In this document: positions 3,143 through 58,327 of the stretch, piece by piece
How the letters are laid out: each line of letters starts with the position of its first letter
Numbering within the stretch: position 1 is the first letter of the stretch
Assembly: GCF_964355755.1 (NCBI RefSeq)
Contig: NC_092674.1
Span: 17,808,501-17,872,500 of the forward strand
Source of the DNA: Antedon mediterranea
Lineage: Eukaryota > Echinodermata > Crinoidea > Comatulida > Antedonidae
Reading direction: 5' to 3'
Length of the DNA: 64,000 bases
Program-made: the position numbers and the translations under genes
Notes under the pieces: model-generated
Told to the model about the DNA's origin: nothing
The model's input: only the letters and a program-made list of their open reading frames with translations
The model's database searches: none

Positions 3143-4288
3143 TTTTTCTATGTTCTTCTTTCTTTCCACGAATTTTGTTCGCAGTGTATCTCTAATTCTG
3201 GCCACCATATGATTGTATAACTTTGTCAAAAGATTGCCCTGTAGCTGTAGATGTGCAAGAAACTTTTTTTTATGAATTTTGAGTCGCGCAGTGTAAGTTA
3301 CGCGCAATTTTATGAATTTCAATGATTGATCATAGATTAAAAACCAAAAGTCATTTTGTATTGAAACTTGGTGAAAATTTTAGTTATATCAAGCGCAAAG
3401 TTTCTATGGATTAAAAATGGCATGTTCAACAGAAAGTTATGCGCGCACGCGCGTTTAAAATTTCAAAATGCGAAACATCAATTTCTAATCAACTTTTTAC
3501 GCGTTTCATGTCATTTTGAGCATTTCATAAATTCCCACACGTGCGCAATTTTTTAACGCGCCCGTGCGCACGTAGCGCAAAGACATCATTTTTTTGCTTG
3601 ATTTTTGTTTTTTCTGTCTTTTATAGTATATTTACCAATTTTCAATCAATTTTGCCTTAAAATCACGTCATACGAGCACGTAGAATTAAAGAATTTGCGC
3701 GCAATCTTGATGAAAAAGTTCAAAAAAATGTCAAAATTATGCCTTTTTTTAAACAGTCATAGATTCTAAACTATGTGGTGAACTTTTTTATAATTACATA
3801 TTCTGATAGTAGATGAGTTGTAGATATCGAATCATGCATCAATATGGCTAACCGGACATTGTGACGTCATCGTATGGCCACTCGAATTTAAAATATAGGA
3901 TTTTTGTCTCTTTCCTCATAGCTCGTCACATTTAATAGAGCGCATCTCCACATATTTGTTTTCCATTTCCCCCCATTTTTTTATATTGTCTAGGTCAATC
4001 AATTATCTTTCGCATGATTCAACATTTTTTAAATTTTTATGACGTCATCATGTGCAAAAGCGTAAATAACTTTGGTCACTTATTTTCACCTATTCTGCAC
4101 TGTATGTAGTACGTATACAGTATAGTGTATACTGTATATACTTAGACGTGTCACAAAATAGAGGGCGCACTAACATTTTTTCAATGGAAAAATCGTTTCT
4201 CTGCGCCCAATATTCTAACGTATGACGTGCACGTGGCTTTTGCGCTGCGGATAACCTAACTCGTCCGTAGTGACGAGTTCAAATCTAG
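3143..4288 (+). mobile_element. Second Helentron-like unit in tandem, 5'-truncated
   Basis: It begins directly at the T that follows the CTAG end of the previous unit and contains the same succession of blocks, including GCGCGCACGCGCG near 3440 and CCGGACATTGTGACGTCATCGTATGGCC near 3855 (only part quoted: GTGACGTCATCG). It ends with GCGGATAACC, the hairpin AACTCGTC/GACGAGTT and CTAG at 4285-4288. The 5' terminal hairpin is missing. Head-to-tail tandem copies are common for rolling-circle transposons. Confidence 0.6.
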
Positions 4289-16214: not shown

Positions 16215-16785
16215 TTACTTGAATACATCTGGGTGAATCCCAGAGGGGTCCGCCCCGACCGGCCGTCTCACTTCTAACAGGTCATCATATATGTGTGGCA
16301 GCCACTTTCCTCCTTGGTTTCTGTTCATGTTGTTATCAGTTTTTCTAATTAAAATTGCTTCTTGCCATCCTCTCTTGTTTATGTTTCCATCTTTCTTTAA
16401 CACTTTTGCCTCCCAATTAGGTGTATGGTTTTCCTTTATAGCATGGTCTGTAATTGCAGATTTATGTGTAATGTTTGATTGTGACATTCTGCTTGACCTT
16501 GTCATAACTCCTTTCATGTGATCTTCTACATCTTTTTTATGTTCTTTTATTCTGTTTCCCAGTTTTCTCCCGGTTTCTACCATGTATATTAGGTTAAAAT
16601 TCATACAGGGTACACCATACACTACTGTCCTCCGGCTTAATTTTATCTTTTGGGTGTACTAGATGTGAACACTGCACAGTATTACGATTTCTTGTATAAC
16701 TGCAAAGTTTTTTGGGGTTTGACCTCGGTCCCTGGAATATGCCAAAAATGAAAGACATGTTCAACACCGTATAAACACAGCCCAA
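16215..16785 (-). pseudogene. Penelope-like element fragment (GIY-YIG endonuclease end)
   Basis: The - strand frame at 16785-16594 ends in a block with LVHPKDKIKPEDSS. After a one-step frameshift near 16600 the frame 16622-16215 continues with YGVPCMNFNLIYMVETGRKL, a GIY-YIG-type nuclease start, then RIKEHKKDVE, ITDHAIKENH, and ends RRPVGADPSGIHPDVFK. This is the C-terminal endonuclease domain of Penelope-like retroelements, which follows their reverse transcriptase. The RT itself is absent, so the copy is 5'-truncated, which is usual for this class. Confidence 0.8.
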
Positions 16786-18829: not shown

Positions 18830-20210
18830 AATTGAGTAATTTGTTTTAGAGTCTTTAAGTGTCCATATATATTTACTGAGTTCCGTTGCGTTTCTTAGTT
18901 TTTCGTTCCGGAATGAAGACGTACAGTATGGTTTCTGTATCTGGTTTTAAACTGGTTTTCAGTTAGTCCGACATATGTTTCTTCTTTTGATGAATCTTCA
19001 CTCTTTACTGGTAAACTACACCTTTTGTTAGGCAGTTACCTGGGAGCGGGCATTCATTGGGATTGCGGCAGTTACATCCGCTTGTTTTCGCGTTGGTTTC
19101 AGTAGACTTTTCTTTGGCTATCACATATTTGTTGTGTGCGTTAATTACTTTGTCTACGCTGGGCATGCAACTGTAGCTTAGTTTCAAGGTATTTCTGTTA
19201 AATATTTTTCTGAGCTTGTTGCCGGCAGGAAAACAATCTTCTACTATAGCTAAAAACTTGTGGCCGATGTTGGTTGCTACGTTTTTGCTGAATGGTGGGT
19301 TAAACCAAATTATGTTTCTGGTACGTGATTTTTTGGGCTTCTGCTGTTCAGCATTGAACTCAAGTTGATGATTGTATCCGCTTTCTTTGAGGGCTTCCTG
19401 GTATAGGGGTGCAGATGCATGAAATGTATCTTTGTCTGATGAGATGTCAGAAAGGTGGGAAGTGGGATGTTGCGGATAATAGACGGAGGATAGTTGCTGT
19501 CATGGTGCACGTAGGTTGGTTTGTTATTAGGCTTAGTTAAAGGTCGGAAGATCCCTGTCCTTAGGTCGAACGTTACATCCAAATAATTGACTATTTTCTT
19601 GTTAGCATCAATTGTTAGCTTGAGGTTGTTCTCCTGGAAAACCTTACAAATATCTTTCTTGATTAGCTCAATCGTTTTGGCTGATTCGCGAAACGCAGCT
19701 AGGCCGTCGTCGCGGTATAGACCAATTTGGTTGCCACATTTGTTAGACAGTTGCGACAAAAGATATGTACCTACGATTTCACAGGTTTCAGCACCGTCAA
19801 AGCTTCCCATTGTGACGTCAAACACAGGTTGGTTTTCAGTTCCTTTTTTGCACCATGTAGCGTTATCATGGAAAAGGAGTGACTGTTTCGCTTGGATAAT
19901 AATATTTGTTTCTTCATCGGAGATTGCTTCAAACTCGGAGGCGAATTCAAGGGCTTTTTTAAGTAGGTCAATGGTTGTTGACGGGTAGAAATCAACTATG
20001 TCGAAGCAAATAAACGAGTGCTTCTCCTTGTTTTGAATGTTCTTTATACCATTCGATAACAGAATTAGTGTTCTTCCATTGATTTAATCCTGTAGACGCT
20101 ATTATTTTCTTATTTATTCTTTCAAGGATTTGTTTACTTACGATGCCAATTTCTGATTTCGATGGGTTGATCAATCTACATGTCGGGTTGTTCTCGAAGT
20201 TGGGTTTTTG
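18830..20210 (-). pseudogene. Penelope-like retroelement (RT and GIY-YIG), decayed
   Basis: On the - strand the order is: a thumb/finger block with [19 protein letters not shown] (about 20170-20110); a palm block with FDIVDFYPS (about 20020-19990); [17 protein letters not shown]; the catalytic YRDDGLA near 19700; and NYLDVTFDL near 19580. A linker with the Cys-rich CNCRNPNECPLPGNC (about 19075-19030) follows, then a GIY-YIG block (GVVYQ ... EETYVGLTENQFKTRYRNH) near 19020-18920. Frameshifts near 20000, 19800, 19310 and 19005 break the frame. Penelope-like elements encode an RT related to telomerase RT, plus a GIY-YIG nuclease. The downstream hammerhead ribozyme supports the family call. Confidence 0.85.
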
Positions 20211-20444: not shown

Positions 20445-21043
20445 TGTAATATAGTGTTGTGTTGAGGTACTAATGAAGACTCTTACTCGCTTAACTGTCG
20501 TAACACATATTGTTTATTCAGTATAATACTTCAGTACAATATACAACTATAAGTATAGATAAGGAACGGAGGATCAGTGATGCTGTCGGTGAAGTGTGTA
20601 GGTCTGCTTCTGAAGAAGTGGCTGTAAGGTGTGTGCTCCGTGAGGTGGCTGTAAGGTGTGTCTGGGCCCTTCTGAAACTTGGGGGTATATTGGCTTCGGT
20701 TCATTTGCATATGTCACTACGTAATCTGTGAGGGTAACGATTGGCCCTAAGTTGATCCAGGGGTGTTTAAGTGGGAGTGATTGATCTTATCTGGGGAGGT
20801 TACAATGATGAATTGGCCCTGTCGAATCTCTGCTAAAAACTGTCAATATCTAATTGTTTTACGATGGGAACAGTCACAAAGTTAAGCTAAGTGTTTTCTT
20901 TAGGGATTCTATTATAAACTAAATGGTCATTAAAACATCTGGACAAACTCTCCTCTGGACTTTCTGGGTCAAGTTTGTGAACTTATTTGAATTCTGATAC
21001 AAAGGTCGATTTCTTAATTATAAAAGTATATCGTTATATTACA
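20445..21043 (-). repeat. 3' LTR of copy 1
   Basis: 599 bp, TGTAATATA at one end and TATATTACA at the other. It is about 45 bp shorter than the LTRs of copy 2 because it has one fewer internal unit of the ACAGCCACTTC tandem repeat. The purine-rich tract next to it (AGGGAAACAGAGGGA on the - strand, 21044-21062) fits the plus-strand primer of LTR elements. Confidence 0.92.
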
Positions 21044-21443
21044 TCCCTCTGTTTCCCTTTTTTTGTTTTTCTAATCTATTTAAAATATAAAAATGGTTAT
21101 AATAGTGGCATGCAAAATTTAAAGTTATATAAAAGAAAAAAAACATTATTATAACATATATGCAAAATTGAGTTAGCCAAAACCATTGACTCTGAAGTGT
21201 AACCTTATCACTTTCACTCTCTCTCTCTTGATATAAATTTGAAAAAAAATGTATAAAAAACAAAAGTGTTCTTCAAGATCGACATAATTGTGGGTCCGTT
21301 GCTTTGGAGGCATGCTACACTCGGATTACCGAAATATAGACATCACAACGGTTGGGTTTCCCTAAAGAACATCAGTCCAGAAGTCGTCTCTCGTTAATTA
21401 TTTGAAATTGAAAAAAAAAAAATTTATAAAGGATAAATTGAAA

Positions 21444-22335
21444 TCAATCGGTGGGTTTATATAATCGATAAAAACGGGATGCACTCCACGGTATGTCCAA
21501 CATGTAGGTAGTGGTGTAAGGGATCTCATTGAAATATACCATACCGCAATTCAAGCATTGGTATCCCTTGTTGAAGGATATTTGTTGGCAATTTTGGTGA
21601 ATAAGTGTGCCGCAGCATTTGTTGATTGTACAATCAGTATGAAAGTTTTTAATTTCGGGGTTACATTGACAAATTTGGCAGGGGGTATCTTTGTATTTAT
21701 TTTCCAGGTACTGCATGTTACGGATGTGCGAATATAGTTTTTTCTTATATTTAGTTACAACATATCCAAATGGTGAGTGTTCGCTAGGTTTTAATTCGTC
21801 TTGGGGTATGATGCCTGTTTGTTGTCGGACTCTTGAAAAAAATGTTGTGCATTGTGGGGTTTTGATGTCTTTTGTAACTGCTAAGAGCAGGAGGGTCATA
21901 GAATAAATATGTTGTCTGTGAAATTCATGTGTGTTTGGTATACAAGTGGCGATGCCGTCTAAATTAATGGAAAGGTCGATTGTGGAAAAGTCAAGTAGGG
22001 CTGGTTCAGTCTTATGCTTCCAAATGTAGTCTATAATGGGGGAGGACATTTTGTTGAAACAACATAAATAACTGCCAATGTGTAAAAGGGTATTTAATTT
22101 GAGGTTAGTCAGTTGGTCTGCTGGACGAATGTCGCAAAGGAATAATAAAACTCTTTTCAAGGAACCTAAAGTAAATGGCATCATTTTGGTAATATAGAAT
22201 TACGTTTTGTTCGCTTTGGTAAAGGATTATCTTCTTTATAAGGGCACATTCTGTGGACAGGGGCGTCATTGGAATTTTGTGTTTTAAGCATAACTGTGTA
22301 ACGTCAAGCTTTTCGGATTCCATTTTAGGGGGCAA
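21444..22335 (-). CDS. Extra ORF of copy 1 with PHD-like Cys/His cluster
   Basis: Two overlapping - strand frames, 22335-22105 (76 codons, starting MPPKMESEKL) and 22184-21444 (246 codons, starting MMPFTLGSLKRV), lie between pol and the 3' LTR. They may be one gene broken by a frameshift near 22150, or two overlapping genes. The C-terminal third has a Cys/His series that fits C4HC3: CQIC, then HTDC, INKCC, LIHQNC and YQCLNC, as in PHD or RING-CH fingers. No signal peptide or transmembrane helix is apparent, which argues against an envelope protein. The rest matches nothing I know. The region is absent from copy 2, where homology resumes on both sides of a gap of about 1.3-1.4 kb. Confidence 0.65.
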
Positions 22336-23266
22336 TTTGGAATTGACTAGAATTACGATAAATAAAAATTAAAATGTATTTAAAATAAACAATATCGAAC
22401 TAAATAAACGATATAAAACTCAAACAATAAAATTTCAAGTTCAACTATTATAACAATCTCACAAAAGTAAATTAACTTATAATTCGACAGTAAATACTGT
22501 ATATTTGATATGCTCGTGCGACTTATTTATAGTCTGCCCATCCGGTTGTTTTTATATATAGCTCGTAATTGGCTCTACTCCTCCCTCGAGCGTTAATTGA
22601 ACGTCAATTGGTCAAATTTTAAAAAAATTCAAAACTTAAAGAATAATATGTACAATGAATATATATCAAATAGCGCGACAACTTATCGCGTTCTAATGGC
22701 CTTCAAACATAAATCAATCAAATCAAAACATGAAACTCAAGAAACTGTGGCTGATTAGCCTAAAATCAAAATATCAAACTTAATCACTTAAAACTTTGAA
22801 GAAACAAATGTGTGTCCCGTTGACACAAACTTATCCATAATATATCGTTATCGTCACAAATTTATGGATTTAAGCATTTATATTTACAGGTAATTACGAT
22901 TTCAATCAATTGACAAATTCGACTTTTGTACTCAATGTCAAAAAAAGTTACAATTTAAAGTACTAAGAAAATCTCCTGTTCTTGTATCAATTAATTAATG
23001 ATTGAGATTAACGACTCAAAGGTTAAACAAAATGTTTGTTACAAAATGATTGTCGTTCTTTTCAATATCTCAATATATCGATCATTCAAAATTCAAAATT
23101 AATCATTATCAAACTTGTTACAAATCAATACTTAAACATAAATTCAATTCTCTTTTAACTGAAATCACATCATTACTAAACAAATCTCATCAAAAATACG
23201 TAGACTATGCTATTATTAATTTAGCAAATGTCGTAATTTAAAAATAATCTTGCAAAAAAAATTAAA

Positions 23267-23854
23267 TCAGTAACTTGTTGCATTATACAAACGTTTTATG
23301 AATCGTTTTGGCGATCCACTTATCGGTATCTGTTTATCATTAATGATCTCTTTAATTAATTTATCTGTATCGTTATATCTGTCAATATTCCACCAAAATT
23401 TGCGATCATTAGATTCTTGTTTTGTTTTATCAATGTTGCGTTTGACTGAAGTCAGTTTAGAATATGAAACTAAAACTTGGAAATGTCCTGCTTTAAATCT
23501 ACCTCGGTTTAATGTCATATTTGAATCATTAGGTGCTGTCATAATTAGATTAGTTTGTTCCTTAATTTGTTCTTCTTTCATTTGGAATGGGGCTGCTAAT
23601 CCTATGTTATTCTCTACACAGTCAATGTAAGGTTGCAAGTTAAGGGGTTCTACTTTAGTTGGATGTGTAAGGGTATCTGATTGCAATTGGGTGGGTGTCC
23701 TATCATGTTCGTCTACAAATTCGACATTGGTTTCGTCATTTACTACATTAATGGTGTTTTGGATTTTCTTATTATTATCATTAGTGGGTTCATTCAACAA
23801 TTGTTTAAGTTTTTGGAGATGTGTAAAATTTTTGCGTTCTTTGGGTGTTCTCAT
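23267..23854 (-). CDS. C-terminal extension of copy 1 pol
   Basis: This 195-codon frame, starting MRTPKERKNFTHLQKLKQ, corresponds to the tail of the copy 2 pol frame beyond the integrase core. It contains an acidic stretch (NDETNVEFVDEHD) and ends with a well-conserved block (NRGRFKAGHFQVLVSYSK ... FWWNIDRYND ... SGSPKRFIKRLYNATSY). It is not a chromodomain that I can recognise. Similarity between the two copies is high, so it was maintained until recently. It is separated from the rest of pol by a frameshift near 24000. Confidence 0.7.
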   Translation of the reverse strand: MRTPKERKNFTHLQKLKQLLNEPTNDNNKKIQNTINVVNDETNVEFVDEHDRTPTQLQSDTLTHPTKVEPLNLQPYIDCVENNIGLAAPFQMKEEQIKEQTNLIMTAPNDSNMTLNRGRFKAGHFQVLVSYSKLTSVKRNIDKTKQESNDRKFWWNIDRYNDTDKLIKEIINDKQIPISGSPKRFIKRLYNATSY

Positions 23855-23989
23855 AAAACAAGGTTTCAGTCTGTTATAATTGAATATGTCGCGAAGTATT
23901 TCTCCTTTAATCGTCGCTAGGATGTAGTGTGTTCTGTCTAGTACTTCATAAATTACTAATGGTCCGACCCATTCTGCGGCGATTTTCTA

Positions 23990-26900
23990 TGAATTTGCCG
24001 TTAGTGATGATGATGTTGGCTTGTATAAATATACGAGTTGTCCTACTGAGTAAATTGGATTTTTTCTAAGCGTTGGGAAATCTTTGAGTTTTGGACGTTT
24101 TGTTGTGTTCGCTGTAATTGTAGCATTGTCTGTGAAATGTTTTGAAATTTCTTCTTGAGGTGTTCAAATTCTTCATAGGAATGAGACAATCCTGAAATAG
24201 GGTTAAATGCTAATGAGGTCAAACTTGGAGGTTGGCGGCCAAAAACTAATTCGTAAGGGGAGTGGTTTCCTAGATGTGGGGATGAAAACGAGTTATAAGC
24301 ATAACATGTTGTTGATACAAATCTAACCCAATCTGTTCCGAATTGGTTAAGGTTGACCTTTAACAGGTCCGATACGGTGCGGATATGACGTTCAACTTGT
24401 AAACTACCGTGATTGTGGACGCTGATGATTTTCCTATCAATATTAAGGGTGTTACATAGTAGTGTTAATAATTTTCCTGTAAGGGAGGTTGCTGCATCTG
24501 AAATAAGACGAGATGGGGGTCCAAAAATACTGATTACCTTTTGAATTAGTGCTTCACAAATTGTTTCGGCATCAATGGATTTCAAAGGTACACAAATCAA
24601 AAACCTAGTTATTTCATCACATACTACCATAATATGTTTAAAACCTGAAGGTGATGTTGGCATACTCTTAAAATCTAGACTGAGTGTATGAAAGGGACGG
24701 TAAGTTGCTGGTACTCGATCGTGTAAAGGACGTAATTTATCGGTTTTGGGACGAAATTGTTGACATCTAAGACACGCTTGGGTATAATTGTTGACTTTCT
24801 CGAACATAAGGGGCGTGTAAAATAATTTCCTAATAGTAAGGTAAGTACGCATCGTACCTTGGTGGCTACTTAACAAATTGTCGTGATACTGAGAAATAAC
24901 AGTCTCTGCTAAGTTTTCAGGAACAGATACAAATTCTCCACCTTTATCTTGGAAAAATAAACGGAATAGTAAACCGTTGCACAATATGTACTGCTCTGAC
25001 TTATTCTGAACTGCACGAGCTGCTTTCTTATCAGCTGGAAGGATATCATGAGCTAAATAATCGTAAACTGGCTTAAAAAATGGTGAAGTTTTTTGTTCAA
25101 CACGTAGTTGTTTAACATCTACTGGGAGGTTATAATCCAAGTCTTGTTGTTTTGGGATGTGTGCTGATTTAAATTCAGTTATGTTGGGTACTAGTGGTTT
25201 GGGCGATGTATACAATTCAACTGGTACATTTCGATGTGTAGTATCTTTGCTTTGCTTATTTTTGTCTACTAGTCGTTCCTCTGGAGGTTGTCGAATGTTT
25301 ACATTACGTATTGGGGGTGGTGTTACGATGGGTGGCATTATGATAGGCGGTGATCGATGTGCGTTTGTTTGTTGTCTCGTGATTATCTGTGGTGTAGCGG
25401 TAAGTTGAGGTGTAGGTCGCGTGTTTGTTGTCACTGGATTTTGATTAATGACGTGCGTTTGTTTGGGTTTGGGTTTATGTAGGTCAGGTATATTTATTCC
25501 AATTTTCTTGGCGTATGACCTTGTTACTGGTCTGCTAGTAGATGTGTTTGTAATCGGGTTAAGAGATTCAGTCTCTGTAATATTAAATGCAATGGGTACA
25601 ACTTGATCAATTTCGGAATCGTCGTCACGAGGGGCTCGGGAGAGGAAATCTGCTAAAACTAATTCAGTTCCTTTCTTATAACCAATTTGGAAAATGTATC
25701 CGGACAATCGTAATATTACTGTAGTTTCTGTAAACGGGGTGTACATGGCTGATCTTTTGAATTCCAAATTTGTACAATTGCTGAGTGGTCTACGAATGCA
25801 TCAAATTCGCAACCCTTTAGTAAGTGTCGAAATGCTGAAACATTGATGTAAAGTCCAAATAACTCTAATTCTGTGACGCTATATCGTTGACAGGCTTGTG
25901 GTAAGATTTTGGAATAATAACCTATTATGTGTTCTTTACCGTTTACTGTTTGTGGTAAATATGAACCTGTTGCGGTTCATGAAGTGTCGCTATATAGCGT
26001 AAATCTACCTTCTTTTCTAGGCATTTGAAGAGTAGGTGGTTTAACCATTAATTGTTTAATTTCGTCAAATGCTTTCTGGTGTTCAGTAGACCAAACAAAC
26101 TTTCGACGTTTACTTGCGAGTGTATGTAACGGGCGTAAAATTGATTGTATTTGAGGGAAAAAATGGGATACATAATTTACTGCACCAATAAATCGTTTAG
26201 TTTCTTTATGGGTTCGTGGGACTGGCAAATTTCGGATAGCTGCACACCTGTCGCCTAATGGTGTTATACATGCGTGTCCTGAAGAATTAATCAGGATGGT
26301 GTGTCCCATATATTGCACTTTATTCTTGAATATCTTACATTTCTTTGGACAAATTCTAAAACCATTTAATTGTAGGGCTTGTAAAACGGAAACAAGGTGC
26401 TGCTTATGAGCAAATTTGTCTTGGCTAAATAAAATAATATCATCGTGATGGGCGATACAGAATTCTCTAGAATTTGGGATTTCATTTAAAATTTCGTCAA
26501 TCTTTGCTTGAAATATACCTGGCGAAACGTTTAATCCTTGTGCTAATCTCTTATAATAATAATGTTTTCCACCATGATATGAAGCTATACCTGTGTATTG
26601 TTGGGCATGTTCGGCTAATGGTACACAGTGGAACGCTGATTTTAAATCAATTACGCTAAGAATCTGTGCATTAGCGTTACCTATTGTTTTCAAAGTTTCG
26701 GCCAATAAGGGGAATGGGTGATTAATACGTTTTATCCTGGAATTTAGATAGCGAAAGTCTGTGACAACTCTTTTATCTTTCGAATTTTTCTTTGAAACAA
26801 GAAGGACGGGGGAAGTATACGATTGGTATCCTACTGCTAAGATTCCTAGTTTGACTAATTTGTTCAATTCGGCCTCAATAACATGTTTGTCTTTGTCTGT

Positions 26901-27931
26901 CGCGAAGTATGGTCGAATAAAAAATGGTTCATCGTTAGAGAGGTGTATGTCAGCTTTGAAGTTTGGGCAGCTAGATAGTTCACCATATAGTGAAAATGCG
27001 TTTCTGTTTTGTTGTAATGTTTTATACAAATCTTCTTTTTCTCTATGTGTTAAAACGCTGTCTGTTAAATCAACTTGTTTTCTAATTATTTCTTCCTCGG
27101 TTAAAGTTAGCAATGGGTCTGTACGTTCTAAATGTGGGTACTTGTTTGCGTTGTCATTGGTCAACTTTATTCTATCAATTGGTAGGTCGTTAGTAACTGT
27201 TACAAGGTTGGTTAAGTGAAGGCTCGCGATAGGTTGATGTGTATTTAGAGATACGTTTCTGTTTGTGTTGTTAGTGATATCAATGTTGGTTTCTCCTCTG
27301 TGTAATTTTACTAACATATCTGATGGACAAAGTTTTGAAATATGGGTGGTTGCATGTAGAACAACATCAGAATTGCGTACAAAGGCGAAAAGCCTTCCTT
27401 TTAATTTAACTGTTTTGGTATCACCGGGTTTAAGAAAAATCTTGTGGACAGGACGAAAGCTAAAAATCTTTGGTCTAATGCGAAAGGTGTTTTCCTTAAA
27501 ATTTAAAGTACCGTCGAGTTCAGACAATGTTTCGGTTCCAAGTATCAGGTCAATACCTGTCAAATTTTTAACGATTAACGCTGAAATTTTAAATTTGTGT
27601 CCTTGGATAAATAATTCGTATTGCACTAAGTGGTTGGAATATAAGAAGTCACCGTTACCTATCTAAATTTAGTTGTGTTCACTTTAATTGGCTTTTGACG
27701 CGATAAATAAAGTGAGGAATTAACGTACGATTGTGAGATTATAGTTCTAGTTGAACCACTGTCAAATAAAGTTAAAACATTTCTACCATCTGGTAAATTT
27801 CCTTTAACGTAATTTCTGTCGTTAAGTAACAAATCGATCTTATCTGAATTCCCTAAGTATTTTGCCTTAAAATTGTCGTATTTTGTATGGGGGGCCAGAT
27901 TATAGGCGGCATCTAGTTCCCTTTTTAAAAA
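23990..27931 (-). pseudogene. pol polyprotein of copy 1 (PR-RT-RNase H-IN), broken
   Basis: From the gag-pol overlap at about 27930 the frame runs through an aspartic protease (LFDSGSTRTII), then RT with SVIDLKSAFHCVPL and AHHDDIILF (catalytic DD, with His where Tyr or Val is usual). RNase H follows (TLYSDTS), then an integrase HHCC finger (YHDN, SSHQG, CLRCQQ), the DDE core (LSLDFKS, LISDAATS, QVERHIR) and a downstream domain. Lesions by comparison with copy 2: a 1-nt deletion near 27665; TGA at 25977-25979 in RNase H; a 5-nt insertion near 25720; a 39-nt in-frame deletion near 25130; and a frameshift near 24050. Pol would normally make DNA from the genomic RNA and integrate it; this copy cannot. 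Confidence 0.9.
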
Positions 27932-27934
27932 TCC
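27921..27934 (-). promoter_or_regulatory. Likely gag-pol -1 frameshift site
   Basis: On the - strand the end of gag reads GAG GAT TTT TAA AAA. Slipping back one base on the T run gives GGA TTT TTA AAA AGG, which enters the pol frame and avoids the gag stop. The same run is present in copy 2 at 52062-52075. A -1 shift is a common way for LTR elements to make Gag-Pol; no downstream stimulatory structure was evaluated. Confidence 0.55.
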
Positions 27935-28885
27935 TCCTGGTGGCTAGGGTAATAATTGTTTGAATGTTGGTATGGGTATGGCGGGGGATAATTTCCGTAA
28001 GAACGGTTTTGTTGTCGGCAGTGCCTTGCTATGTGGCCTGGTTTCCCGCAGTAATAACAGGTTGGGGGAGGTTGTCTATATCTTGGGGTCGGTGTGGTCT
28101 GGAATCGGGGTTTGTAGGGGCTTGGGCTTCGGTTTTGTCTTGGGATATAATTTCGGGTGGGGGAACATGAGCGTCGAGTATCATCATTAAGGGATCGTTT
28201 TGTTGTGGCTATATCTATACTTAAGAGAATTTATCTCATGTTGGAGCGATTCGAGACTATTATCTGTTTCCTTATTGACCTTGAATGAAACTTCCCGTGT
28301 GGCATCATCTACGGAAAGGTCAAGGTAATTTTGTGTGCTATTTACGATATTGTCAATAGTGGCATCGATTGGGGTGGACATGGCTACAGCTGCTCTACAT
28401 TTTGGTGGAAGGGTCGAAATAAATTTATTCTTTATCTGCTGGTCAGCGTATCCAATTCTGTCTGCGGCTTGTTTGATTTTGGTTAAGTGTTTTTCGGCGT
28501 TGTCGCCAGTGGTGTAAGTAATTGAATCGTATTCTCTTATGTGCGCATAGATTGATTTGTTTTTACTAAACCTGTTGATGAATTGGGTTTTTAAGGATTC
28601 CAGTGAATCGAACTGCTTTCCCTCAATCCAGAGTCTAGCTTGGCTCTGAAGGCTACGTTTGAAAATACTTATTACATTAATTAATTGGGCATTGTTTACA
28701 GGGTTTTCTAAAGTGTGGGCCTCAAGGTAGTCGGTAAACGATAAGTAGTGTGCACTACATTGGTCGTGATCGGTTATGGAACCGTCATATCTTTTGGGAA
28801 GGAAATCGGTTTGTCTTAGGTGGGGCACGGGGTGAGGATTGACGGGCTCATTTAAAATTACTTCGTTATCAACAACGTCGACCAT
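27925..28885 (-). pseudogene. gag of copy 1, frameshifted
   Basis: The frame starts MVDVVDNEVILNEPVNPHPV and contains a capsid-like region (RYDGSITDHDQCSAHYLSF, ARLWIEGKQFDSLESL). A 2-nt insertion near 28208 shifts the frame. Beyond it the sequence still encodes an Arg/Ser/Pro-rich stretch and a CCHC zinc knuckle (CYYCGKPGHIARHC, near 28040-28000), and runs to a stop in the TTTTTAAAAA run. Gag forms the particle and binds the RNA. Compared with copy 2 it keeps six residues (RIGYAD) that copy 2 lost. Confidence 0.88.
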
Positions 28886-29461
28886 ACTTTATAATATTAA
28901 TTATCAAAATATCAAAAACAATTTAGTGTATATATATGTAAATTCTCACTTTTCAATCAAGGTTACAAATCAAAAATCAAAATGGTTTTGACTTACCCCA
29001 AATGCTTCGGATCCAATTAAAAATGAATTAAAGGAATGTTAAAAGTGCTCATCAATGTTCAAATTTTCAAACAATGAATTAAAAAAAATGCGAAAGGGTT
29101 TCATCAATGTTCAAAATGTTAAAAAAAACGATCGAAAAAAACGGCGTGAAGTTGAAAGTGTCCAAACAAAACAGTTCTTGTCCGCTTGCTTCTGTTTTCC
29201 GTTTTGATTCTTCTTGTGTCTTCCTCGATTATCTTCTTTGTCTTCATCCAATGGTTATAATTTGATAAAATTTCTGCTTGTCTCGATCTCATTCAAATAT
29301 AATTTCAGCTTGTCTTTTGTGTAAAAGTAAATTTCTGGTTTTCTCCTTTCAAACAAATATGGTTATTTTTGTCTTCGTCTTCGTGTCTTGTTAGGTGTTT
29401 CTTGTTTTCTTGTTATTCTGTTTTCTCACTCTGTTCCTTATAAAATTTGGGTCTTCCACCA

Positions 29462-30065
29462 TGTAATATAGTGTTGTGTTGAGGTACTAATGAAGACTCT
29501 TACTCGCTTAACTGTCGTAACACATATTGTTTATTCAGTATAATACTTCAGTACAATATAACTATAAGTATAGATAAGGAACGGAGGATTAGTGATGATG
29601 TCGGTGAGGTGTGAAGTGTGTAGGTCTGCTTCTGAAGAAGTGGCTGTAAGGTGTGTGTTCCGTGAAGTGGCTGTAAGGTGTGTCTGGGCCCTTCTGAAAC
29701 TTGGGGGTATATTGGCTTCGGTTCATTTGCATATGTCACTACGTAATCTGTGAGGGTAACGATTGGTCCTAAGTTGATCCAGGGGTGTTTAAGTGGGAGT
29801 GATTGATCTTATCTGGGGAGGTTACAATGATGAATTGGCCCTGTCGAATCTCTGCTAAAAACTGTCAATATCTAATTGTTTTATGATGGGAACAGTCACA
29901 AAGTTAAGCTAAGTGTTTTCTTTAGGGATTCTATTATAAACTAAATGGTCATTAAAACATCTGTACAAACTCTCCTCTGGACTTTCTGGGTCAAGTTTGT
30001 GAACTTATTTGAATTCTGATACAAAGGTTGATTTCTTAATTATAAAAGTATATCGTTATATTACA
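29462..30065 (-). repeat. 5' LTR of copy 1
   Basis: 604 bp, TG...CA. Directly inside it on the - strand lies TGGTGGAAGACCC (29461-29449), starting with the TGG expected of a primer-binding site that pairs with a tRNA CCA end. I cannot name the tRNA. Confidence 0.92.
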
Positions 30066-31124: not shown

Positions 31125-31325
31125 TGTTGTCCGGGTGGGAGTTGTTCTAAGGGGGTAGTTGTCCTAGAGGGTAGTTGTCCTAGAGGGTAGTTGTCCTAGT
31201 GGGTAATTGTCCGGGTGGTAGTTGTCCTAGAGGGGTCATTGTCCGGGTGGTAGTTGTCCTAGAGGGGTCATTGTCCGAGTGGTAGTTGTCCGGGTGGTAA
31301 TTGTCTAGTAGGAGTAGTTGTATAC
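31125..31325 (+). repeat. Minisatellite, about 16-17 bp units
   Basis: Repeated variants of GGGTAGTTGTCCTAGA, with forms such as GGTAGTTGTCCGGGT and GGTCATTGTCCGGGT, run for about 200 bp. Units abut without spacers, so this is a tandem repeat and not a CRISPR array. It is non-coding. Confidence 0.85.
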
Positions 31326-43627: not shown

Positions 43628-43663
43628 GTCAATGCCCTATGTGAAAAACTTTGGTGTCAAATT

Positions 43664-49770: not shown

Positions 49771-50414
49771 TGTAATATAACGATATACTTTTATATTTAA
49801 GAAATCGACCTTTGTATCGGAATTCAAATAAGTTCACAAACTTGACCCAGAAAGTCCAGAGGAGAGTTTGTCCAGATGTTTTAATGACCATTTAGTTTAT
49901 AATAGAATCCCTAAAGAAAACACTTAGCTTAATTTTGTGACTGTTCCCATCGTAAAACAATTAGATATTGACAGTTTTTAGCAGAGATTTGACAGGGCCA
50001 ATTCATCATTGTAACCTCCCCAGATAAGATCATCACTCCCACTTAAACACCCCTGGATCAACTTAGGACCAATCGTTACCCTCACAGATTACGTAGTGAC
50101 ATATGCAAATGAACCGAGGGCCAATATACTCCCAAGTTTCAGAAGAGCCCAGACACACCTTACAGCCACTTCTTCAGAAGAACATCTACACCTTACAGCC
50201 ACTTCACGGAGCACACACCTCACAGCCACTTCTTCAGAAGCAGACCTACACACTTCACACCTCACCGACAGCATCATTGATCCTCCGTTCCTTATCTATA
50301 CTTATAGTTGTATATTGTACTGAAGTATTATACTGAATAAACAATATATGTGTTACGACAGTCAAGCGAGTCAGAGTCTTCATTAGTACCTCAACAACGC
50401 AACATTATATTACA
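49771..50414 (+). repeat. 5' LTR of copy 2
   Basis: 644 bp, TG...CA. The second half has imperfect tandem units around ACAGCCACTTCTTCAGAAG (50160-50240), one unit more than in copy 1. AATAAA at 50336-50341 is a likely polyadenylation signal. Directly after the LTR, TGGTGGAAGACCC (50415-50427) is the presumed primer-binding site. Confidence 0.94.
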
Positions 50415-51137
50415 TGGTGGAAGACCCAAATTTCATAAGGAACAGAGTGAGAAAACAAGAAATAAACACTTAACAAGACACGAAGACGAAGACAAAAATA
50501 ACCATATTTGTTTGAAAGGAGAAAACCAGAAATTTACTTTGACTCAAAAGACAAGCTGAAATTATATTTGAATGAGATCGAGACAAGCAGAAATTTTATC
50601 AAATTATTACCATTGGATGAAGACAAAGAAGATAATCGAGGAAGACACAAAAGACAAGCTGAAATTATATTTGAATGAGATCGAGACAAGCAGAAATTTT
50701 ATCAAATTATAACCATTGGATAAAGACAAAGAAGATAATCGAGGAAGACCCAAGAAGAATCAAAACAGAAGCAAGCGGACAAGAACTGTTTCGTTTGGAC
50801 ACTTTCAACTTCACGCCGTTTTTTTTTCCGATCGTTTTTTTAACATTTACTTTTTTTGAACATTTATGAACACCTTTCGCATTTTTTTTTTTAATTCGTT
50901 GTTTGAAAATTTGAACATTGATGAACACTTTTAACATTTTTTTAATTCGTTGTTTGAACATTTAAACATTTTTGAACACTTTTTGCATTCCTTTAATTCA
51001 TTTTTAATTGGATCCGAAGCATTTGGGGTAAGTCAAAACCATTTTGATTTTTGATTTGTAACCTTGATTGAAAAGTGAGAGTTTACATATATATACACTA
51101 AATTGTTTTTGATATTTTGATTAATTAATTATAAAGT

Positions 51138-52004
51138 ATGGTCGACATTGTTGATAACGAAGTAATTTTAAATGAGCCCGTCAATCCTCACCCCGTGCCC
51201 CACCTAAGACAAACCGATTTCCTTCCCAAAAGATATGACGGTTCCATAACCGATCACGACCAATGTAGTGCACACTACTTATCGTTTACCGACTACCTTG
51301 AGGCCCACACTTTAGAAAACCCTGTAAACAATGCCCAATTAATTAATGTAATAAGTATTTTCAAACGTAGCCTTCAGGGCCAAGCTAGACTCTGGATTGA
51401 GGGAAAGCAGTTCGATTCACTGGAATCCTGAAAAACCCAATTCATCAACAGGTTTAGTAAAAACAAATCAATCTATGCGCACATAAGAGAATACGATTCA
51501 ATTACTTACACCACTGGCGACAACGCCGAAAAACACTTAACCAAAATCAAACAAGCCGCTGACCAGCAGATAAAGAATAAATTTATTTCGACCCTTCCAC
51601 CAAAATGTAGAGCAGCTGTAGCCATGTCCACCCCAATCGATGCCACTATTGAAAATATCGTAAATAGCACACAAAATTACCTTGACCTTTCCGTAGATGA
51701 TGCCACACGGGAAGTTTCATTCAACATCAATAAGGAAACAGATACTAGTCTCGAATCGCTCCAACATGAGATAAATTCTCTTAAGTTAGATATGGCCACA
51801 ACAAAACGATCCCTTAATGATGATACTCGACGCTCACGTTCCCCCACCCGAAATTATACCCCAAGACGAAACCGAAGCCCAAGCCCCTACAAACCCCGAT
51901 TCCAGACCCCACCGACCCCAAGATATAGACAACCTCCCCCAACCTGTTATTACTGCGGGAAACCAGGCCACATAGCAAGGCACTGCCGACATCAAAACCG
52001 TTAA
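51138..52004 (+). pseudogene. gag of copy 2, one nonsense codon and a 7-nt deletion
   Basis: It starts MVDIVDNEVILNEPVNPHPV after a leader of about 720 bp. Relative to copy 1, TTA has become TGA at 51429-51431 (after FDSLES), and an in-frame 18-bp deletion near 51560 removes RIGYAD. The C-terminal part is rich in Arg, Ser and Pro (RRSRSPTRNYTPRRNRSPSP) and ends with one CCHC knuckle (CYYCGKPGHIARHC, about 51946-51987). A 7-nt deletion near 52002 creates an early TAA and separates gag from the downstream frameshift run at 52062-52075. The role of Gag is particle formation and RNA binding. Confidence 0.9.
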
Positions 52005-52067
52005 ATTATCCCCCGCCATACCCATACCAACAGTCAAACAATTATTACCCTAGCCACCAGCAGGATT

Positions 52068-55000
52068 TTTAAAAAGGGGACTAGATGCCACCTATAATCT
52101 GGCCCCCCATACTAAATACGACAATTTTAAGGCAAAATACTTAGGGAATTCAGATAATATTGATTTGTTACTTAACGACAGAAATTACGTTAAAGGAAAT
52201 TTACCAGATGGTAGAAATGTTTTAACTTTATTTGACAGTGGTTCAACTAGAACTATAATCTCACAATCGTACGTTAATTCCTCACTTTATTTATCGCGTC
52301 TAAAGCCAATTAAAGTGAACACAACTAAATTTCGATTAGGTAACGGTGACTTCTTATATGCCAACCACTTAGTGCAATTCGAATTATTTATCCAAGGACA
52401 CAAATTTAAAATTTCAGCATTAATCGTTAAAAATTTGACAGGTATTGACCTGATACTTGGAACCGAAACATTGTCTGAACTTGACGGTACTTTAAATTTT
52501 AAGGAAAACACCTTTCGCATTAGACCAAAGATTTTTAGCTTTCGTCCTGTCCACAAGATTTTTCTTAAACCCGGTGATACTAAAACAGTTAAATTAAAAG
52601 GAAGGGTTCCCGCCTTTGTACGCAATTCTGATGTTGTTCTACATGCAACCACCCATATTTCAAAACTTTGTCCATCAGATATGTTAGTAAAATTACACAG
52701 AGGAGAAACCAACATTGATATCACTAACAACACAAACAGAAACGTATCTCTAAATACACATCAACCTATCGCGAGCCTTCACTTAACCAACCTTGTAACA
52801 GTTACTAACGACCTACCAATTGATAGAATAAAGTTGACCAATGACAACGCAAACAAGTACCCACATTTAGAACATACAGACCCATTGCTATCTTTAACCG
52901 AGGAAGAAATAATCAGAAAACAAGTTGATTTAACAGACAGCGTTTTAACACATAGAGAAAAAGAAGATTTGTATAAAACATTACAACAAAACAGAAACGC
53001 ATTTTCACTATATGGTGAACTATCTAGCTGCCCAAACTTCAAAGCTGACATACACCTCTCTAATGATGAACCATTTTTTATTCGACCATACTTCGCGACA
53101 GACAAAGACAAACATGTTATTGAGGCCGAATTGAACAAATTAGTCAAACTAGGAATCTTAGCAGTAGGACACCAATCGTATACTTCCCCTGTCCTTCTTG
53201 TTTCAAAGAAAAATTCAAAAGATAAAAGTGTTGTCACAGACTTTCGCTATCTAAATTCCAGGATAAAACGTATTAATCACCCATTCCCATTATTGGCCGA
53301 AACTTTGAAAACAATAGGTAACGCTAATGCACAGATTCTTAGCGTAATTGATTTTGAAATCAGCGTTCCACTGTGTACCATTAGCCGAACATGCCCAACA
53401 ATATACAGGTATAGCTTCATATCATGGTGGAAAACATTATTATTATAAGAGATTAGCACAAGGATTAAACGTTTCGCCAGGTATATTTCAAGCAAAGATT
53501 GACGAAATTTTAAATGAAATCCCAAATTCTAGAGAATTCTATATCGCCCATCATGATGATATTATTTTATTTAGCCAAGACAAATTTGCTCATAAGCAGC
53601 ACCTCGTTTCCGTTTTACAAGCCCTACAATTAAATGGTTTTAGAATTTGTCCAAAGAAATGTAAGTTATTCAAGAATAAAGTGCAATATATGGGACACAC
53701 CATCCTGATTAATTCTTCAGGACACGCATGTATCACACCATTAGGCGACAGGTGTGCAGCTATCCGAAATTTGCCAGTCCCACGAACCCATAAAGAAACT
53801 AAACGATTTATTGGTGCAGTAAATTATGTATCCCATTTTTTCCCTCAAATACAATCAATTTTACGTCCGTTACACACACTCGCAAGTAAACGCCGAAAAT
53901 TTGTTTGGTCTACTGACCACCAGAAAGCATTTGACGAAATTAAACAATTAATGGTTAAACCACCAACTCTTCAAATGCCTAGAAAAGAAGGTAGATTTAC
54001 GCTATATAGCGACACTTCAAGAACCGCAACAGGTTCATATTTAACACAAACAGTAAACGGTAAAGAACACATAATAGGTTATTATTCCAAAATCTTACCA
54101 CAAGCCTGTCAACGATATAGCGTCACAGAATTAGAGTTATTTGGACTTTACATTAACGTTTCAGCATTTCGACATTTACTAAAGGGTTGCGAATTTGATG
54201 CATTCGTAGACCACTCAGCAATTGTACAAATTTGGAATTCAAAAGATCAGCCATGTACACCCCGTTTACAGAAACTAATATTACGATTGTCCGGATACAT
54301 TTTCCAAATTGGTTATAAGAAAGGAACTGAATTAGTTTTAGCAGATTTCCTCTCCCGAGCCCCTCGTGACGACGATTCCGAAATTGATCAAGTTGTACCC
54401 ATTGCATTTAATATTACAGAGACTGAATCTCTTAACCCGATTACAAACACATCTACTTGCAGACCAGTAACAAGGTCATACGCCAAGAAAATGGGAATAA
54501 ATATACCTGACCTACATAAACCCAAACCCAAACAAACGCCTGTCATTAATCAAAACCCAGTGACAACAAACACGCGACCTACACCTCAACCTACCGCTAC
54601 ACCACAAATAATCACGAGACAACAAACAAACGCACATCGATCACCGCCCATCACAACGCCACCCATCGTAACGCCACCCCCAATACGTAATGTAAACATT
54701 CGACAACCTCCAGAGGAACGACTAGTAGACAAAAATAAGCAAAGCAAAGACACTACACATCGAAATGTACCAGTTGAATTGTATACATCGCCCAAACCAC
54801 TAGTACCCAACATAACTGAATTTAAATCGGCACACATCCCAAAACAACAAGACTTAGATAGATTAATGGATGTTATTCAAAGAAAGATAATTAGAGATTA
54901 TAACCTCCCAGTAGATGTTAAACAATTACGTGTTGAACAAGAAACTTCACCATTTTTTAAGCCAGTTTACGATTATTTAGCTCATGATATCCTTCCAGCT

Positions 55001-56781
55001 GATAAGAAAGCAGCTCGTGCAGTTCAGAATAAGTCAGAGCAGTACATATTGTGCAACGGTTTACTATTCCGTTTATTTTTCCAAGATAAAGGTGGAGAAT
55101 TTGTATTGCAATTAGCTGTTCCTGAAAACTTAGCAGAGACCGTTATTTCTCAGTATCACGACAATTTGTTAAGTAGCCACCAAGGTACGATGCGTACTTA
55201 CCTTACTATTAGGAAATTATTTTACATGCCTCTTATGTTCGAAAAAGTCAACAATTATACCCAAGCGTGTCTTAGATGTCAACAATTTCGTCCCAAAACC
55301 GATAAATTACGTCCTTTACACGATCGAGTACCAGCAACGTACCGTCCCTTTCATACACTCAGTCTAGATTTTAAGAGTATGCCAACTTCACCTTCAGGTT
55401 TTAAACATATTATGGTAGTATGTGATGAGATAACTAGATTTTTGATTTGTGTACCTTTGAAATCCATTGATGCCGAAACAATTTGTGAAGCACTAATTCA
55501 AAAGGTCATCAGTATTTTTGGACCCCCATCTCGTCTTATTTCAGATGCAGCAACCTCCCTTACAGGAAAATTATTAACACTATTATGTAACACCCTTAAT
55601 ATTGATAGGAAAATCATCAGCGTCCACAATCACGGTAGTTTACAAGTTGAACGTCATATCCGCACCGTATCGGACCTGTTAAAGGTCAACCTTAACCAAT
55701 TCGGAACAGATTGGGTTAGATTTGTATCAACAACATGTTATGCTTATAACTCGTTTTCATCCCCACATCTAGGAAACCACTCCCCTTACGAATTAGTTTT
55801 TGGCCGCCAACCTCCAAGTTTGACCTCATTAGCCTTTAACCCTATTTCAGGATTGTCTCATTCCTATGAAGAATACTTTGAACACCTCAAGAAGAAATTT
55901 CAAAACATTTCACAGACAATGCTACAATTACAGCGAACACAACAAAACGTCCAAAACTCAAAAATTTCCCAACGCTTAGAAAAAAGTCCAATTTACTCAG
56001 TAGGACAACTCGTATATTTATACAAGCCAACATCATCATCACTAACGGCAAATTCAAAGAAAATCGCCGCAGAATGGGTCGGACCATTAGTGTTTCATGA
56101 AGTACTAGACAGAACACACTACATCCTAGCGACGATTAAAGGAGAAATACTTCGCGACGTATTCAATTATAACAGACTGAAACCCTGTTTTATGAGAACG
56201 CCTAAAGAACGCAAAAATTTTACACATCTACAAAAACTTAAACAATTGTTGAATGAACCCACCGATGACAATAACGAGAAAATCCAAAACACCATTAATG
56301 TAGTAAATGACGAAACCAATGTCGAATTTGTAGACGAACATGATAGGACACCAGCCCAATTGCAATCAGATACCCTTACACATCCAACTAAAGTAGAGAA
56401 CCCCTTAACTTGCAACCTTACATTAACTGTGTAGAGAATAACATGGGATTAGCAGCCCCATTCCAAATGAAAGAAGAACAAATCAAGGAACAAACTAATC
56501 TAATTATGACAGCACCTAATGATTCAAATATGACATTAAACCGAGGTAGATTTAAAGCAGGACATTTCCAAGTTTTAGTTTCGTATTCTAAACCGACTTC
56601 AGCCAAACGCAACACCGATAAAACAAAACACGAATCTAATGATCGCAAATTTTGGTGGAATATTGACAGATATAACGATACAGATAAATTAATTAAAAAG
56701 ATCATTAATGATAAACAGATACCGATAAGTGGATCGCCAAAACAATTCATAAAACGTTTGTATAATGCAACGAATTACTGA
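52068..56781 (+). pseudogene. pol of copy 2 (PR-RT-RNase H-IN plus tail), two frameshifts
   Basis: Domains in order: protease (LTLFDSGSTRTIISQ at about 52225-52265; LILGTETLSE near 52460); RT fingers (TSPVLLVSKKNSKDK, VVTDFRYLNSRI near 53235); RT palm (AQGLNVSPGIFQ, AHHDDIILFSQ near 53550); RNase H (RFTLYSDTS near 54000, VTELELFGLY near 54125, DAFVDHS near 54205); integrase zinc finger (QYHDN, SSHQG, CLRCQQF near 55270); integrase core (LSLDFKSMP, LISDAATS, LQVERHIRTV); and a conserved C-terminal tail ending RLYNATNY. Lesions relative to copy 1: a 1-nt insertion near 53352, within the first RT aspartate motif, and a 2-nt insertion near 56398. Confidence 0.92.
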
Positions 56782-57682
56782 TATAATTTTTTTTGCAAGA
56801 TTATTTTTAAATTACGCTAAATTTGCTAAATTAATAATAGCATAGTCTACGTATTTGATGAGATTTGTTTAGTAACGATGTGATTTCAGTTAAAAAAGAA
56901 TTGAATTTATGTTTAAGTATTGATTTTTTAACGAGTTTTTTGATAAAAGATTAATTTTGAATTTTGATGATCGATATATTGAGATATTGAAAAGAACGAC
57001 AATCATTTTGTAACAAATATTTTGTTTAACCTTTGAGTCGTTAATCTCAAGCATTAATTAATTGATATACAATAACAGGAGATTTTCTTAGTACTTTTAA
57101 TTGTAATTTTTTTTGACATTGAGTACAAAAGTCGAATTTGTCGACTGATTGAAATCGTAACTACCTGTGAATATAAATGCTTAAATCGATAAAGTTGTGA
57201 TGATAACGATATATTGTGGATAAGTTTGTGTCAACGGGACACACACATTTGTTTCTTTTAAAGTTTTAAGTGATTAAGTTTGATATTTTGATTTTAGGCT
57301 AATCAGCCACAGTTTCTTGAGTTTTATGTTTTGATTTTATAATTTATGTTTGAAGGCCATTAGAACGCGATGAGTTGTCGCACGATTTGACGTATGTTCA
57401 ATGTAACATACTATTTTTAAGTTTTGTATTTTTATTTTTAACTGATTTATGTTTGATTTACGCGAATTTTATACCAAATTCATTTTTATTAAGAGAGAGA
57501 AGAGAGAGAGTGAAAGTGATAAGGTTACACATCAGAGTCAATGGTTTTGGCTAACCCAATTTTTGCTTATATGTATAATAATGTTTTTTTTCTTTTATAT
57601 AACTTTAATTTTGCATGCCACTATTATAACCATTTTTATATTTAAAATAGATTAGAAGAAAAAAAACAGGGAAACAGAGGGA

Positions 57683-58327
57683 TGTAATATAACGATATAC
57701 TTTTATATTTAAGAAATCGACCTTTGTATCGGAATTCAAATAGGTTCACAAACTTGACCCAGAAAGTCCAGAGGAGAGTTTGTCCAGATGTTTTAATGAC
57801 CATTTAGTTTATAATAGAATCCCTAAAGAAAACACTTAGCTTAATTTTGTGACTGTTCCCATCGTAAAACAATTAGATATTGACAGTTTTTAGCAGAGAT
57901 TCGACAGGGCCAATTCATCATTGTAACCTCCCCAGATAAGATCAATCACTCCCACTTAAACACCCCTGGATCAACTTAGGACCAATCGTTACCCTCACAG
58001 ATTACGTAGTGACATATGCAAATGAACCGAGGGCCAATATACTCCCAAGTTTCAGAAGAGCCCAGACACACCTCACAGCCACTTCTTCAGAAGAACATCT
58101 ACACCTTACAGCCACTTCACGGAGCACACACCTCACAGCCACTTCTTCAGAAGCAGACCTACACACTTCACACCTCACCGACAGCATCATTGATCCTCCG
58201 TTCCTTATCTATACTTATAGTTGTATATTGTACTGAAGTATTATACTGAATAAACAATATATGTGTTACGACAGTCAAGCGAGTCAGAGTCTTCATTAGT
58301 ACCTCAACAACGCAACATTATATTACA
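57683..58327 (+). repeat. 3' LTR of copy 2
   Basis: 645 bp, preceded by a purine-rich tract (AGGGAAACAGAGGGA, about 57668-57682) suited to plus-strand priming. Nearly identical to the 5' LTR. Confidence 0.94.

What the first reader, a model, noticed from the sequence alone, without database searches (positions are those of the whole stretch)
21260..22640. LTR element copy 1 carries an extra PHD-like ORF that copy 2 lacks
Between pol and the 3' LTR, copy 1 has about 1.3-1.4 kb absent from copy 2, with clear homology on both sides. It encodes frames at 22335-22105 and 22184-21444 (-), ending in a C4HC3 Cys/His series (CQIC, HTDC, INKCC, HQNC, CLNC). The position is where envelope or accessory genes sit, but no signal peptide or membrane helix is apparent. 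Either a captured or an ancestral accessory gene, lost from copy 2. I know of no described Ty3/gypsy accessory protein with this architecture.
Basis: partly seen in the sequence, partly recalled or inferred. Interest (0 to 1): 0.78.

Follow-up and report, generated by a model that had tools for sequence, protein, structure and literature searches.

The report
Jumping gene's extra zinc-finger gene
One of two near-identical retrovirus-like jumping genes in this animal genome carries an extra, otherwise unknown gene with a zinc-finger-like end that the other copy lacks; this is probably an accessory gene of the element, but only one copy could be seen, so its history and function are not settled.

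Summary
Two young Ty3/gypsy (Metaviridae) elements lie in the window. Copy 1 (minus strand, 30065-20445) has 1396 nt (22622-21227) between pol and the 3' LTR where copy 2 (49771-58327) has 67 nt. The segment is coding: its 251-codon frame exceeds 2000 of 2000 shuffles, and codon usage hands over from frame A (22323-22105) to frame B (22184-21444) near 22200. It looks like one gene, broken here by a frame change. Frame B ends in a C4HC3 cysteine/histidine array; no membrane helix or glycosylation site is evident. No significant relative was found in the protein, viral, prokaryote, phage, plasmid, Pfam, PHROGs, NCBIfam or PDB searches run, and AlphaFold gave no usable model. PHD and RING readings are both unproven. 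Clean gain or loss is disfavoured: the 78 nt left of the junction differ at 17 sites, against 30 of 564 further out. I read a 3' module exchanged between element lineages. The genome-wide search that would decide was unanswered in 24 of 24 tries. Accessory ORF3s in LTR elements are a known kind; this protein type in one did not turn up in my literature searches.

The parts
20445..30065 (-). Copy 1, full-length Ty3/gypsy (Metaviridae) element, TG..CA ends, target duplication TTTG (4 bp; 3 bp not excluded, since a T follows all four LTRs)
29462..30065 (-). 5' LTR of copy 1 (604 nt), followed by TGGTGGAAGACCC, a primer-binding-site-like stretch identical in copy 2
   Evidence: function inferred
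27925..28888 (-). gag of copy 1, two overlapping open stretches; zinc knuckle CX2CX4HX4C
   Evidence: zf-CCHC E 3.5e-6
23267..27662 (-). pol of copy 1 (RT, RNase H, integrase), open in three stretches 27662-25977, 25800-24043, 23986-23267
   Evidence: RVT_1 1.1e-27, RT_RNaseH_2 1.4e-6 (28.7 bits, just below its cut-off of 29.8), Integrase_H2C2 4.4e-16, rve 3.1e-8
21227..22622 (-). 1396-nt segment of copy 1 that stands where copy 2 has 67 nt
   Evidence: blastn ends
22496..22531 (-). possible internal promoter: TATAAATA at 22531 and ACAGT starting 31 nt further on; one of 3 such pattern matches in the window (0 on plus, 3 on minus)
   Evidence: function inferred
22347..22370 (-). possible splice acceptor (T-rich tract ending in CTAG), 23 nt before the frame A start
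   Evidence: sequence reading; function inferred
22105..22323 (-). frame A, 72 codons, start in good context (TAAAATGG)
   Evidence: codon usage favours this frame in 4 of 5 scan windows starting 22358-22226
21444..22199 (-). frame B, 251 codons open (246 from ATG 22184)
   Evidence: codon usage favours it in 15 of 15 windows starting 22193-21731, in 0 of 8 starting 21698-21467
21546..21680 (-). C4HC3 Cys/His array, residues 169-213 of frame B
21044..21063 (-). polypurine tract before the 3' LTR
   Evidence: sequence reading
20445..21043 (-). 3' LTR of copy 1 (599 nt)
   Evidence: 8 differences in 597 aligned sites to the 5' LTR
49771..58327 (+). Copy 2, same family, without the extra gene; target duplication TTAG; LTRs differ at 3 of 644 sites
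57434..57500 (+). 67 nt of copy 2 that stand where copy 1 has 1396 nt

Best explanation
The segment is a 3' accessory-gene module of a Metaviridae element. It holds one gene of about 300 codons (seen here as frames A and B, broken in this copy by a frame change) and its own leader, and it entered the element lineage of copy 1 by recombination between packaged element RNAs rather than by a clean insertion. Shown here: coding character, position, absence from copy 2, Cys/His array, no membrane or envelope hallmarks, diverged left junction. Inferred: the Cys/His end folds as a two-zinc cross-brace finger (RING/PHD-like). The protein would be made from a separate message (internal promoter or spliced RNA) and act inside the cell on host or element factors, as a ubiquitin-ligase-like or chromatin/transcription accessory protein, not as an entry protein.
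For: Frame length above 2000 of 2000 shuffles, and a codon-usage hand-over between A and B. Both copies are young (LTR differences 8 of 597 and 3 of 644), and pol evolved under constraint between them (50 synonymous and 35 nonsynonymous differences over 1376 codons, pN/pS 0.195), so they descend from replicating lineages. The left junction is diverged (17 of 78 against 30 of 564, p=7e-6) and no target duplication bounds the segment (reading), which fits exchange between element lineages. C4HC3 array. No membrane helix or glycosylation site. Frame A has a good start context, with TATA and CAGT elements and an acceptor-like tract upstream.
Against: Only one copy of the segment was seen. No significant relative was found by any search run. 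No selection test on A/B was possible. Codon usage does not favour frame B over its Cys-rich end (0 of 8 windows starting 21698-21467; another frame scores a little higher), and in 1 of 5 windows frame A is beaten too. In gag the copies differ by 7 nonsynonymous and 0 synonymous changes over 224 codons, so constraint is not uniform. Third-position G+C of frame B (0.41) differs from pol (0.28-0.30), though gag is 0.43. The right flank is also more diverged than gag-pol overall (15 of 177), so the left-flank excess may partly be fast change or alignment noise in AT-rich noncoding DNA. TATA-like strings are common in 35% G+C DNA.
Confidence: 0.5

Rival explanations
1. Ancestral accessory gene, lost from copy 2 by a plain deletion.
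For: Weak similarity of copy 2's 67 nt to both ends of the segment (best split alignment places the break at 22590/21261; no chance control was run). Copy 2 is younger by its LTRs. A degenerate repeat at the right edge (21218-21249 and 21387-21418, 75%) could have helped a deletion.
Against: A recent plain deletion should leave flanks about as similar as the rest of the element; the 78 nt at the left differ at 17 sites.
Confidence: 0.25
2. A host or other viral gene fragment picked up by this one copy (transduction), with no role in the element.
For: Seen once; plant LTR elements are reported to transduce host genes in one or few copies (PMC7264820, passages); third-position composition differs from pol.
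Against: The segment keeps a start in good context and a long sense frame in the usual ORF3 position. No host-like domain or homologue was found. No poly-A tail or target duplication seen at its edges (reading); only short AT-rich repeats, none read as terminal inverted repeats.
Confidence: 0.17
3. Remnant of an envelope gene.
For: Position between pol and 3' LTR; envelope proteins diverge fast (recalled).
Against: No hydrophobic segment above mean 1.27 in 19 residues and no N-x-S/T site in either frame.
Confidence: 0.05
4. Chance open frame.
For: No homologue in the searches run; codon usage does not favour frame B over its last third.
Against: 0 of 2000 shuffles reach its length, and codon usage tracks frames A and B over the first two thirds.
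Confidence: 0.03

Closest known systems
ORF3s of bdelloid rotifer LTR retrotransposons (PMC5408684; outline, abstract and passages seen)
   Same: Non-envelope sense ORFs downstream of pol, gained repeatedly and shared between element lineages; typically expressed from spliced messages according to the paper
   Different: Those are GDSL esterase, DEDDy exonuclease, coiled-coil or membrane proteins; the term search gave 0 hits for zinc and RING and 1 for PHD, whose passage I did not see
Additional ORFs of plant LTR elements, e.g. Grande gene23 (PMC7264820, passages; the Grande paper only as cited there and in PMC8220671)
   Same: Extra gene between pol and 3' LTR, own promoter and a nuclear protein reported for Grande
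   Different: Grande's gene is antisense; plant hosts; 0 hits for zinc finger, PHD or RING in the review
MDG1-group sORF2/FAST-like proteins (PMC11952523, passages)
   Same: Accessory ORF in Metaviridae, in some Lepidoptera downstream of pol
   Different: 63-107 residue membrane proteins; frames A and B have no membrane segment
PHD fingers in LINE ORF1s (PMC4120745, search listing only; otherwise recalled)
   Same: A retroelement protein with a PHD-type finger
   Different: Non-LTR elements and ORF1 position; no sequence comparison made
RING domain of RCHY1 (PDB 2ecm, 2jrj)
   Same: Same H-xx-C-x10-C-xx-C second half; best sequence match, E 0.022
   Different: Not significant; T stands where the RING's fourth ligand (H) is, C185 and C190 would have to take over (reading)
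Foamy virus Tas/Bel accessory genes with internal promoter (recalled, no call)
   Same: Post-pol accessory genes with their own promoter
   Different: No sequence link tested

Membership tests
Metaviridae (Ty3/gypsy) | LTRs with TG..CA ends and 4-6 bp target duplication | tested here: met
   TGTAATATAACG...TATATTACA in 4 of 4 LTRs; TTTG and TTAG duplications. Caveat: a T follows all four LTRs, so 3 bp cannot be excluded
Metaviridae (Ty3/gypsy) | RT-RNase H-integrase order in pol and CX2CX4HX4C gag knuckle | tested here: met
   Pfam hits in order; RNase H just below its cut-off because the frame is cut
Troyka LTR elements | CG..CG ends and CX2CX8-10HX4C knuckle (PMC12440569, outline and parts 1-2 of 5 read) | tested here: not met
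   TG..CA ends, CX2CX4HX4C knuckle; the 3-bp duplication of Troyka is not decisive here
PHD finger | Significant Pfam profile match | tested here: not met
   No PHD family listed up to E 10 (HMMER filters drop most weak matches); best are VWC2L 0.0064 and zf-C2H2_3 0.01, both below cut-off
PHD finger | C4HC3 order with PHD spacing (last loop 11-46 as I set it) | tested here: not met
   Order met, last loop is 10 residues; spacing limits recalled
RING finger | C3HC4, RING-H2 or RING-CH ligand pattern | tested here: not met
   Three pattern tests negative (patterns recalled); other C4HC3 RING variants remain possible
Zinc cross-brace fold | Confident structural model | tested here: inconclusive
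   Single-sequence AlphaFold pLDDT 36.1 (246 aa) and 36.8 (78 aa)
Retroviral/errantiviral envelope | Membrane anchor and glycosylation sites | tested here: not met
   on frames A and B apart
Accessory ORF3 of LTR elements | Present in several copies and under selection | not tested
   The genome search unanswered in 24 of 24 tries; absent from the one other copy in the window

The most novel reading that the evidence does not exclude
A Metaviridae lineage of an aquatic invertebrate carries a third gene with its own internal promoter. The gene encodes a roughly 300-residue intracellular C4HC3 zinc-finger regulator (ubiquitin-ligase-like or chromatin-acting) of a protein family not yet described, and it moves between element lineages as a 3' cassette, an invertebrate analogue of complex-retrovirus accessory genes.
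Probability: 0.25. Interest if true: 0.65.

Novelty: new variant of a known kind. Interest (0 to 1): 0.42.

Why it matters
LTR retrotransposons generally encode gag and pol, and additional genes are the exception (PMC12440569, introduction). An intracellular zinc-finger accessory gene would show that complex-retrovirus-like regulation or host counter-measures arose in Metaviridae too, and that the slot after pol is a swappable cassette. The claim can be tested by counting and comparing copies in the same genome.

Tried and rejected
Homology: 84 candidates shared words with frame B in the 5.8-billion protein set, none at E 1 or better. A second search drawing words from residues 115-225 had 1 candidate, none at E 10. 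These searches reach only relatives that share exact five-residue words. Viral contigs with frame B, the RT frame, the integrase frame and an RT alignment: 3, 4, 3 and 19 stretches matched a pattern, none confirmed. Prokaryote genome contigs with the RT alignment and frame B: 24 and 33 stretches, none confirmed. Phages and plasmids by tblastn: no match. Pfam, PHROGs, NCBIfam: no family above cut-off for frames A or B. PADLOC was not run.

Structure: both single-sequence AlphaFold models are unusable, so no fold search was run on them.

Troyka membership was considered and rejected on LTR ends and gag knuckle (PMC12440569). An envelope gene and a chance frame were disfavoured as above. A clean nested transposon was considered: no target duplication seen, only short AT-rich repeats.

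Literature: the listings of 9 answered searches and the passages seen of six papers (PMC5408684, PMC7264820, PMC12440569, PMC11952523, PMC6338049, PMC8220671) showed no Metaviridae element with a PHD- or RING-type ORF after pol. The library holds only open-licence papers and I opened six, so this is not proof of absence.

Errors of mine: a tblastn of frame A used a start one base off and is void; frame A was read correctly. The first window of the identity profile (29400-29208, 78%) is a slicing artefact; one search aligns 29214-29403 with 50461-50650 at 97%. LTR slices were off by one or two bases at the ends; corrected coordinates are. The first dN/dS script stopped on a zero (after printing the indel counts) and was rerun.

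Full report
What is there. The window holds two elements of one LTR family: copy 1 on the minus strand (30065-20445, target duplication TTTG) and copy 2 on the plus strand (49771-58327, TTAG). The four LTRs begin TGTAATATAACG and end TATATTACA. A T follows all four, so the duplication could be counted as 3 bp. Pfam finds a gag zinc knuckle, RT, RNase H (just below cut-off) and integrase in copy 1 in Ty3/gypsy order. With the 561-residue RT frame as query, 124 proteins reached E 1e-10 among 7993 scored candidates, 120 of them listed. The best three are unnamed ENA proteins at 59-61% identity over 93-100% of the query; the named ones are from Patella caerulea (48% over 100%) and Apostichopus japonicus (55% over 82%). 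The host is therefore most likely an aquatic invertebrate; this is inference.

The difference between copies. Copy 1 has 22622-21227 (1396 nt) where copy 2 has 57434-57500 (67 nt). gag-pol differs at 114 of 5587 sites (2.0%). The LTR pairs differ at 8 of 597 sites (copy 1) and 3 of 644 (copy 2), and LTRs between copies at 18 of 602 and 14 of 599. In pol, the copies show 50 synonymous and 35 nonsynonymous differences in 1376 codons (pN/pS 0.195); in gag 0 and 7 in 224 codons. The lineages thus replicated under constraint on pol, though gag does not show it, and inserted recently.

The junction. Left of the segment, 17 of 78 sites differ, against 30 of 564 in the rest of the post-pol noncoding region (Fisher p 7e-6). 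Right of it, the first 40 nt have 1 mismatch, the next 40 (21186-21147) have 10, probably around a local shift, and the whole right flank has 15 of 177. I saw no target duplication and no terminal inverted repeat that I would credit; the repeats in the segment are short and AT-rich. A clean recent insertion or deletion should leave flanks about as similar as the rest. I therefore favour exchange of a 3' module between diverged relatives, but the weak alignment of copy 2's 67 nt to both ends of the segment (no chance control) keeps a deletion possible.

The gene. The longest frame (251 codons) exceeds 2000 of 2000 dinucleotide shuffles of the segment (max 191). Codon usage trained on the element's own gag-pol, in 99-nt windows, favours frame A in 4 of 5 windows starting 22358-22226 and frame B in 15 of 15 windows starting 22193-21731; over the last 8 windows of frame B (21698-21467), which hold the Cys-rich end, another frame scores somewhat higher. 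So A and B look like one gene with a frame change within their overlap (22199-22105), and the Cys-rich end has no support from codon usage; its support is the unbroken frame and the Cys/His pattern. Copy 1 and copy 2 differ by 13 indels in gag-pol, 8 of them not a multiple of three, so one frame change is unremarkable; a programmed shift is possible but was not tested. Frame A starts in a good context. TATAAATA at 22531 and ACAGT 31 nt on resemble an arthropod-like core promoter (consensus recalled; 0 matches on plus and 3 on minus in the window), and a T-rich tract ending in CTAG lies 23 nt before the start. No AATAAA or ATTAAA lies between frame B and the LTR, while the 3' LTR has AATAAA at 20518, so the LTR would end any message.

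The protein. Residues 169-213 of frame B hold C169, C172, C185, C190/C191, H196, C199, C210, C213. A loose C4HC3 pattern is met in 3 of 100000 residue shuffles; a looser 8-ligand pattern in 225 of 100000; in both cases this is the only hit among 330 window ORFs. The patterns were set after seeing the sequence. Strict PHD, RING-CH, RING C3HC4 and RING-H2 patterns are not met. The RCHY1 RING aligns at E 0.022, VWC2L at 0.0064 below cut-off. A C4HC3 spacing like that of FANCL or listerin is recalled, not tested. No significant homologue was found in the collections searched, and the AlphaFold models have mean pLDDT 36.1 and 36.8.

Mechanism. Shown: coding, position, no membrane signal. Inferred: separate message, intracellular protein with a two-zinc C-terminal finger, acting as a ubiquitin-ligase-like or chromatin/transcription accessory factor. 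RING-like residues (CxIC) and a PHD-like aromatic two before the seventh ligand (YxC) are both present (sequence reading against recalled consensus), so I do not choose between them.

Comparison. Sense ORF3s without envelope features after pol are known in bdelloid rotifers (PMC5408684, outline and passages), and additional ORFs in plants (PMC7264820, passages). Downstream accessory ORFs also occur in some Metaviridae of Lepidoptera (PMC11952523, passages). An annelid survey (PMC8220671, passages) treats sense aORFs as envelope-like. PMC6338049 had no hit for PHD, RING or zinc finger. PHD fingers in LINE ORF1s are known (PMC4120745, listing only; otherwise recalled). None of the passages seen describes a PHD/RING-type ORF3 in an LTR element. 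So the kind is known and the variant appears new within the searches named.

Limits. The genome search was unanswered in 24 of 24 tries, so copy number, gain or loss, and selection on the gene are untested. Everything about function rests on one copy.

Noticed in passing
49338-49749 and 58374-58892: LINE reverse-transcriptase-like fragments on the minus strand on both sides of copy 2; copy 2 seems to have inserted into a LINE (reading of translations).
   Followed up: no
16215-16658 and 19005-20083: Penelope-like-looking RT (YRDDG motif) and GIY-YIG-like frames on the minus strand (reading); only a weak RVT_1 match (E 0.051).
   Followed up: partly
42612-43636: LINE endonuclease in 42612-42992 (PF14529 E 5.5e-8) and an upstream frame without a Pfam match.
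   Followed up: partly
31140-31321: Minisatellite of about 16-nt units, consensus AGTTGTCCTAGAGGGT.
   Followed up: no
50541-50758: 103-nt tandem duplication in the leader of copy 2; none is listed in the leader of copy 1.
   Followed up: no
21218-21249 and 21387-21418: Degenerate direct repeat (75%, 169 nt apart) at the right edge of the extra segment; may have served as a recombination or deletion site.
   Followed up: no
51128-56784 and 23267-28888: Copies differ by 13 indels in gag-pol, 8 of them out of frame; either decay or assembly errors.
   Followed up: no
136-4091 and 37346-38502: A dispersed repeat family in direct and inverted order, 63-89% identical.
   Followed up: no
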